This document shows positions 968 to 20,131 of a stretch of 46,382 nucleotides of DNA, one piece after another. A program made the translations under genes and the position numbers. The stretch comes from Nitrososphaerota archaeon. GTDB taxonomy: Archaea > Thermoproteota > Nitrososphaeria > Nitrososphaerales > JAAOZN01. The notes beneath the pieces were generated by a model that had not been told where the DNA came from, made no database searches, and saw nothing but the letters and a program-made list of their open reading frames with translations. The first letter of the stretch is position 1. Each line of letters opens with the position of its first letter. The stretch is from NCBI GenBank assembly GCA_011605775.1, contig JAAOZN010000007.1, forward strand, positions 1 to 46,382, read 5' to 3'.

Positions 968-1102
968 TGGGACCGCGCGGATTTGAACCGCGGACCTCTA
1001 CCGTAGCGTTAACTCGCCAATTCGGTTATCAGCGTCGCCGAGCACCCTTAGGCTCTCGAACGCTCCTTGGCCAGCCTGCTAACCAAGCTGAGCTACGGTC
1101 CC
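968..1102 (-). tRNA. tRNA-Ile(GAU) with three candidate introns
   Basis: The minus strand reads GGGACCG...CGGUCCC (7-bp acceptor, A73, CCA not encoded) with T-arm CGCGG-UUCAAAU-CCGCG. The gene is 135 nt. A normal 75-nt tRNA emerges only if three pieces are removed: about 14 nt in the D-arm (1066-1079), 23 nt inside the 5' anticodon stem (1034-1056) and about 23 nt at the variable loop (998-1020). The exons then give D-stem GCUC/GAGC, anticodon arm UUCGG-CUGAUAA-CCGAA (anticodon GAU) and variable loop AGGUC. None of the introns is at the canonical 37/38 site. Boundaries can shift by one or a few nt, most for the variable-loop intron. A TATA-like element lies about 28 nt upstream. Confidence 0.85.
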
Positions 1103-1152: not shown

Positions 1153-1228
1153 GGATGATGTTACGATAAGGTCTTAGTGTTTGGTGCTTTCTTTGGCTAT
1201 CACAATTCTACTTATCGTAACATCATCC
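1153..1228. repeat. Perfect 18-bp inverted repeat, 40-nt spacer
   Basis: GGATGATGTTACGATAAG at 1153-1170 is matched by its exact reverse complement at 1211-1228. The arms are separated by 40 nt without obvious structure. The element lies between the divergent promoters of tRNA-Ile and the DUF47 gene. It could be a long hairpin or cruciform, a paired regulator site, or a tiny inverted-repeat mobile element. No target duplication is visible at its edges. Confidence 0.8.
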
Positions 1229-1953: not shown

Positions 1954-2499
1954 ATGCACGCTGAGCTTGTAGGCAACAGAATCATCATCTGGAATATTGA
2001 CGATGCGAGAGCCCTCTTTAAAGAAGGATTTTACGGCAAACCCTTGGGCATACCTAAACCTAAGAACGCTGAATTTAATGCACCTCTTGTCCTAGATCTG
2101 ATAGAAGGATACTATCTTCTAGAGAAGGGCAAAATTTCTATAACACAGTCACCGTCGCACCGAAAGATGAGTTTAAAGAGTATAAGAGAAATTTGTAAAT
2201 CCGAGTACTTGGACTTCCCAGAAAAGTATCTGGTGTATAAGCATCTTAGAGAAGCAGGGTTAGTAGTTAGCCCGGGCATCAAGTTCGGTTGTGATTTTGC
2301 TGTATATGAGCATGGGCCGGGAATAGATCACGCGCCCTATCTTATTGAAGTCGTTAAACCTTCACACGACCTCACAGCTACCCGCATTATCTTGTCAGGT
2401 AGGTTGGCTACTACTGTAAGGAAGCAGTTCATCTTAGCTGTTGCTGACGTACCCAGAAAGAAGGTTGAGTTTATAGCCTTTGATTGGTGGAGAGCTTAA
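1954..2499 (+). CDS. endA: tRNA-splicing endonuclease
   Basis: This nuclease cuts tRNA precursors at bulge-helix-bulge motifs. The 181-residue protein has an N-terminal domain (about 1-85) and the catalytic C-terminal domain with LVYKHLREAG, VSPGIKFGCDFAVYEHG and SGRLATTVRK. The expected catalytic triad is visible as Tyr118, His126 and Lys157. The length matches the single-type-subunit enzymes (alpha4) or the catalytic alpha subunit of the alpha2beta2 enzymes. No second subunit gene is in the window. It lies 0.85 kb from a tRNA gene that needs non-canonical intron removal, for which enzymes with broad specificity are known to be required. Confidence 0.95.
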   Translation: MHAELVGNRIIIWNIDDARALFKEGFYGKPLGIPKPKNAEFNAPLVLDLIEGYYLLEKGKISITQSPSHRKMSLKSIREICKSEYLDFPEKYLVYKHLREAGLVVSPGIKFGCDFAVYEHGPGIDHAPYLIEVVKPSHDLTATRIILSGRLATTVRKQFILAVADVPRKKVEFIAFDWWRA

Positions 2500-20036: not shown

Positions 20037-20131
20037 GGGCCGGTAGTTCAGTGGTATGAGCAGCTGCTTAGGCTGGTGCAGACGCCCGCCTCGCACGCGG
20101 GAGGTCGGGGGTTCAAATCCCCCCCGGTCCA
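20037..20131 (+). tRNA. tRNA-Ala(CGC) with a 22-nt intron after position 25
   Basis: Acceptor GGGCCGG pairs with CCGGUCC and contains the G3-U70 wobble that identifies alanine tRNA. T-arm is GGGGG-UUCAAAU-CCCCC; anticodon arm CCCGC-CUCGCAC-GCGGG (anticodon CGC); discriminator A, CCA not encoded. Between D-stem GUUC/GAGC and the anticodon stem there are 22 extra nt (20062-20083, or shifted by one). They contain a 4-bp CUGC/GCAG helix flanked by short bulges, compatible with a bulge-helix-bulge. Removing it gives a 73-nt tRNA. Confidence 0.92.

What the first reader, a model, noticed from the sequence alone, without database searches (positions are those of the whole stretch)
968..1102. tRNA-Ile(GAU) gene interrupted by three introns, none at the canonical site
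The 135-nt gene folds to a perfect 75-nt tRNA-Ile only after removing pieces in the D-arm, in the 5' anticodon stem (between positions 30 and 31) and at 43/44. Introns of 14, 23 and 23 nt are very short. Multi-intron tRNAs are known mainly in Thermoproteales. I could not fold a strict bulge-helix-bulge at every junction, so the cutting rules may be relaxed here.
Basis: partly seen in the sequence, partly recalled or inferred. Interest (0 to 1): 0.72.

Follow-up and report, generated by a model that had tools for sequence, protein, structure and literature searches.

The report
Triple-intron isoleucine tRNA in a thaumarchaeon
A single isoleucine tRNA gene of an uncultured thaumarchaeon is cut into four pieces by three tiny introns, none at the usual place; relatives show that the pieces are real and the cut sites fit the normal archaeal splicing signal, so this is a well-supported but not new kind of thing, in a lineage less known for it.

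Summary
On the minus strand, window 968-1102 encodes a 135-nt pre-tRNA that becomes a standard 75-nt tRNA-Ile(GAU) after removal of introns of 14, 23 and 23 nt. By splice-signal register the junctions are 21/22, 30/31 and 43/44. Six orthologues from two families of the same order carry all three introns; their mature sequences are nearly invariant while the introns differ. Other relatives have only some of the introns or none, so the exon joins are seen uninterrupted. The organism is a thaumarchaeon (Nitrososphaeria), not a Thermoproteales. The genome has a two-gene splicing endonuclease (catalytic subunit encoded about 850 bp away, with the loop linked to relaxed substrates) and RtcB. No other tRNA-Ile(GAU) gene was found. 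tRNAs with up to three introns, and non-canonical introns in Thaumarchaeota, are already published: a new member of a known kind. No RNA evidence was available.

The parts
968..1102 (-). tRNA-Ile(GAU) gene, 135 nt including three introns
1080..1102 (-). Exon 1: acceptor 5' strand, D stem 5' strand and D loop (positions 1-21)
1066..1079 (-). Intron 1, 14 nt, GCAGGCTGGCCAAG, between 21 and 22; BHB central helix UGGU/GCCA, outer GCU/AGC, inner only CA/UG
   Evidence: orthologous D-arm introns in two other families
1057..1065 (-). Exon 2: GAGCGTTCG, positions 22-30
1034..1056 (-). Intron 2, 23 nt, between 30 and 31; central helix CGUU/GGCG, inner GAGC/GCUC
1021..1033 (-). Exon 3: GCTGATAACCGAA, positions 31-43, with anticodon GAU
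998..1020 (-). Intron 3, 23 nt, between 43 and 44; central helix ACCG/CGGU, inner UGGCG/CGCUA
968..997 (-). Exon 4: variable loop, T arm, acceptor 3' strand, A73
1954..2499 (+). tRNA-splicing endonuclease catalytic (alpha) subunit, 181 aa, with crenarchaeal-type loop (YGKPLGIPKPKN) and apparent Y/H/K triad; likely enzyme for these introns

Best explanation
A functional, single-copy tRNA-Ile(GAU) gene with three ordinary archaeal BHB introns at 21/22, 30/31 and 43/44. The precursor is cut at each junction by the (alpha-beta)2 splicing endonuclease encoded in this genome and the four exons are joined by RtcB. Introns 1 and 2 probably leave in sequence, because their BHB motifs compete for exon nucleotides 23-25; intron 3 can fold independently. 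Shown: gene anatomy, orthologues with variable introns and conserved exons, BHB core at the standard register, presence of both endonuclease subunits and RtcB. Inferred: transcription, actual cleavage, order of splicing.
For: Spliced product is a standard tRNA-Ile(gat), 85% identical over all 75 nt without gaps to the intronless tRNA-Ile(gat) gene of another family (L087). Six orthologues carry the same three introns; mature sequence identical in the genus and 3 of 75 differences to the other family, while intron lengths vary (14-21, 20-30, 19-24 nt). Inner helices are kept through paired changes: intron 2 GAGC/GCUC to AUGG/CCAU, intron 3 UGGC/GCCA to UGGU/ACCA. All three central helices are 4/4 at the standard register in this genome (all three by chance 4e-5); register shift of intron 1 gives 0/4. 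Relatives lack individual introns, leaving exons contiguous. No second tRNA-Ile(GAU) found. Two endonuclease paralogues, RtcB.
Against: No RNA data. The BHB fold is the predicted minimum only at intron 3; at introns 1 and 2 continuous helices are predicted more stable (local -11.4 against -2.9, and -15.9 against -6.2 kcal/mol). Intron 3 in the six orthologues and intron 1 in family f4 keep only 3 of 4 central pairs. Outer helices are short or absent.
Confidence: 0.93

Rival explanations
1. Decayed or insertion-damaged tRNA pseudogene; the true tRNA-Ile(GAU) lies elsewhere in the genome.
For: Standard tools miss it or mis-call it.
Against: Mature part identical in three congeners and near-identical across families while introns diverge, i.e. 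purifying selection on exons only; no other GAU gene found in a 99.6%-complete assembly.
Confidence: 0.02
2. Only introns 2 and 3 are spliced; the D-arm insert is retained as an enlarged, hairpin-forming D arm, since exon and insert pair perfectly over 9 bp.
For: Perfect hairpin CUUGGUUAG/CUGGCCAAG is far more stable than the BHB; inner helix of the BHB is only 2 bp.
Against: Retention destroys the GCTC/GAGC D stem. Orthologous inserts at the same place differ in length and sequence and the 9-bp hairpin is not kept (7 pairs in G001 by eye; different hairpin in f4), while UGGU/GCC(A,G) plus GCU/AGC is kept in f1 and f7. Most relatives lack the insert.
Confidence: 0.03
3. A single-intron alternative fold is the real gene.
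For: ARAGORN with introns allowed returns tRNA-Pro(AGG) with a 45-nt intron.
Against: That reading ignores the anticodon arm conserved in all relatives and has no comparative support; exon joins are directly seen in intronless orthologues.
Confidence: 0.01

Closest known systems
Three-intron tRNAs of Pyrobaculum, e.g. tRNA-Glu(UUC) of P. calidifontis and tRNA-Pro(UGG) of P. islandicum (PMC4390854; PMC4090602)
   Same: Three short BHB introns in one tRNA gene; non-canonical positions among them
   Different: P. islandicum tRNA-Pro keeps one intron at canonical 37/38; here none does. Different phylum and different tRNA.
Non-canonical tRNA introns of Thaumarchaeota (107 counted by tRNAscan-SE 2.0, PMC8450103) and multi-intron tRNAs of Caldiarchaeum subterraneum (PMC3293823)
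   Same: Related lineages, BHB introns in D arm, V arm and elsewhere, several per gene
Introns and split joints at position 30/31 (intron position list in PMC4090602; split tRNA-Lys joined at 30/31 in Staphylothermus and Nanoarchaeum, PMC3218864)
   Same: Same junction as intron 2
   Different: Intron in cis here, not a trans-splice joint

Membership tests
Archaeal BHB tRNA intron | Two 3-nt bulges separated by a 4-bp helix at the junction, cut sites in the bulges | tested here: met
   All three introns in this genome have 4/4 central pairs with 3-nt bulges at the standard register; at introns 1 and 2 this is not the predicted minimum-energy fold
Archaeal BHB tRNA intron, strict form (hBHBh') | Complete outer and inner helices on both sides of the BHB core | tested here: not met
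   Intron 1: outer 3 bp, inner 2 bp. Intron 2: outer 2, inner 4. Intron 3: outer 0, inner 5. These correspond to relaxed forms (HBh', h'BH) described for non-canonical introns and (alpha-beta)2 enzymes (PMC4090602)
Archaeal BHB tRNA intron | Removal gives a standard tRNA cloverleaf | tested here: met
   identity to intronless orthologues
Archaeal BHB tRNA intron | Excised by splicing endonuclease and exons ligated in the cell | not testable with these tools
   No RNA data; enzymes present
(alpha-beta)2 splicing endonuclease | Catalytic subunit with Y/H/K triad plus a degenerate partner subunit; lineage-specific loop with Lys | tested here: met
   Window 1954-2499 aligns end to end with crenarchaeal catalytic subunits 2cv8, 3p1z (E 5e-44, 4e-40) including the YGKPLGIPKPKN loop; second 181-aa paralogue on contig 72 lacks the GPGIDHAPY motif. 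Assembly state itself not tested
Thermoproteales multi-intron tRNA | Organism in Thermoproteales | tested here: not met
   Same-genus contigs are titled Nitrososphaerales/Nitrososphaeria archaeon

The most novel reading that the evidence does not exclude
A conserved three-intron tRNA in thaumarchaea whose intron 1 and intron 2 splice signals overlap in exon nucleotides 23-25, so that one must be removed before the other can be recognised: an obligate order of splicing kept in two families.
Probability: 0.35. Interest if true: 0.45.

Novelty: new member of a known kind. Interest (0 to 1): 0.33.

Why it matters
It adds to the evidence that heavy tRNA interruption is not special to Thermoproteales. 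The order-wide comparison shows one tRNA with none, one or all three introns in related families, which gives a natural series for intron gain or loss in a single essential gene. It also shows that default tRNA finders miss such genes, so tRNA sets of these genomes are probably under-annotated.

Tried and rejected
Default ARAGORN and Rfam gathering scans missed the gene; sensitive Rfam found it. Shifting the D-arm cut to 22/23 was rejected (0/4 central pairs). I first took the order for Sulfolobales/Desulfurococcales from genome sizes; the named contigs show Nitrososphaeria. The bare pattern CTGATAA was uninformative. Marck and Grosjean 2003 is not held, so whether 21/22 has been listed before was not checked.

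Full report
What is there. The minus strand of window 968-1102 reads GGGACCG TA GCTC AGCTTGGTTA [GCAGGCTGGCCAAG] GAGC G TTCG [AGAGCCTAAGGGTGCTCGGCGAC] G CTGATAA CCGAA [TTGGCGAGTTAACGCTACGGTAG] AGGTC CGCGG TTCAAAT CCGCG CGGTCCC A. Without the bracketed parts it is a 75-nt tRNA that ARAGORN calls tRNA-Ile(gat) with no intron; every partial removal fails or gives an intron-bearing or wrong call. Rfam's tRNA model with sensitive filters matches exactly these 135 nt (34.4 bits, gathering 29).

Comparative evidence. A blastn search of 60 relatives found the gene in two congeners (G001, G002) and four genomes of another family, f4 (G005, G031, G039, G047). All six have inserts at the same three places. 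The mature sequence is identical within the genus and differs by 3 of 75 from f4, whereas the inserts differ in length (14-21, 20-30 and 19-24 nt) and sequence. A pattern survey of 400 genomes of the order found all three introns only in f1 (3 of 3 genomes) and f4 (4 of 5; the fifth gave no match). In f7, G008 has only the D-arm intron; G022 has that intron plus a 13-nt insert in the anticodon-arm region. Five f2 genomes have only an insert at 43/44 beginning with the same CCGAATTG. G007 (f6), G046 (f2) and most listed f10 genomes have the exons uninterrupted. Some f10 genomes have instead a 12-nt insert that reads as a canonical 37/38 intron, so very short introns are usual here. The survey depends on exact exon words and on a sample of the order, and the listing was cut, so a genome without any match is not evidence of absence.

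Splice signals. With the standard rule (four exon bases ending two bases before the 5' cut pair with intron bases -6 to -3; 3-nt bulges holding each cut) the central helices in this genome are UGGU/GCCA, CGUU/GGCG and ACCG/CGGU, each 4 of 4. Shuffled introns reach this at all three sites in 4e-5 of trials; with an inner helix as long as observed the single-site rates are 0.006, 0.001 and 0.0001. Inner helices are kept through paired changes between families (GAGC/GCUC to AUGG/CCAU; UGGC/GCCA to UGGU/ACCA). So the BHB core can be drawn at every junction; what is incomplete are the outer and inner helices, most of all for intron 1. A caveat: the lowest-energy fold contains the BHB only at intron 3; at introns 1 and 2 continuous helices are predicted more stable. 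Intron 1's outer helix and intron 2's central and outer helices both need exon nucleotides 23-25, so these two signals cannot form fully at once; that suggests sequential removal (inference). tRNAscan-SE 2.0 iterates its intron search because cases in which one intron must leave before the next BHB can form are known (PMC8450103).

Organism. The genome itself is unnamed, but the congener genes are identical in sequence to those on contigs titled 'Nitrososphaerales archaeon' (L064) and 'Nitrososphaeria archaeon isolate DRTY6_bin.124' (L065). It is a thaumarchaeon.

Machinery. Pfam tRNA_int_endo has two hits in the genome: one in this window at 1954-2499 (+), about 850 bp from the tRNA gene, and one on contig 72. 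The window copy aligns end to end with crenarchaeal catalytic subunits of known structure and shares their extra loop (YGKPLGIPKPKN). That loop has been linked to relaxed substrate recognition (PMC12397907). The second copy lacks the GPGIDHAPY motif and is probably the structural partner. RtcB, the likely ligase, is present. That the endonuclease and the tRNA are neighbours is noted only; no functional link is claimed.

Is it needed? No other GAU tRNA appeared among 29 Rfam tRNA hits, by blastn, or by the exon pattern. With 99.6% estimated completeness, this is most likely the only reader of the AUU/AUC codons and therefore essential (inference).

Comparison with what is known. Up to three introns per archaeal tRNA, and introns at 22/23, 25/26, 30/31 and other places, are published (PMC4090602, PMC4390854, PMC8450103), with most multi-intron cases in Thermoproteales; non-canonical introns in Thaumarchaeota are also published (PMC8450103), as are multi-intron tRNAs in Caldiarchaeum (PMC3293823). 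The present gene is a new member of that kind. Its distinguishing points are that all three introns are non-canonical and that the arrangement is kept in two families of Nitrososphaeria.

Noticed in passing
window 1153-1228: A roughly 75-bp element with 18-bp perfect terminal inverted repeats (GGATGATGTTACGATAAG) lies just upstream of the tRNA-Ile gene. At least seven related copies occur elsewhere in the genome; several are flanked by 7-9 bp direct repeats (e.g. AGCTGCTC in L102, TGCAGGGAG in L100), as expected of a non-autonomous mobile element (MITE-like). No target repeat is evident at the window copy, and the same place in G001 and G002 lacks it.
   Followed up: partly
window 20037-20131: tRNA with anticodon CGC in an Ala-like body, carrying a D-arm insert of about 24 nt; ARAGORN mis-calls it.
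   Followed up: no
G000, loci L009, L016-L026: About 12 of the 29 Rfam tRNA hits are longer than an intronless tRNA of their class, some with more than one apparent insert (L025, L026), so the whole genome is rich in tRNA introns.
   Followed up: partly
L090 (G019), 43/44 region: tRNA-Ile of G019 (family f2) has an intron containing a second copy of CGGCTGATAACC, as if the intron had partly duplicated the anticodon arm.
   Followed up: no
L030-L032, about 30-45 nt upstream of the tRNA: Conserved AAAAGTTATTTTAGA-like stretch in all three congeners, a probable TATA/BRE promoter.
   Followed up: no
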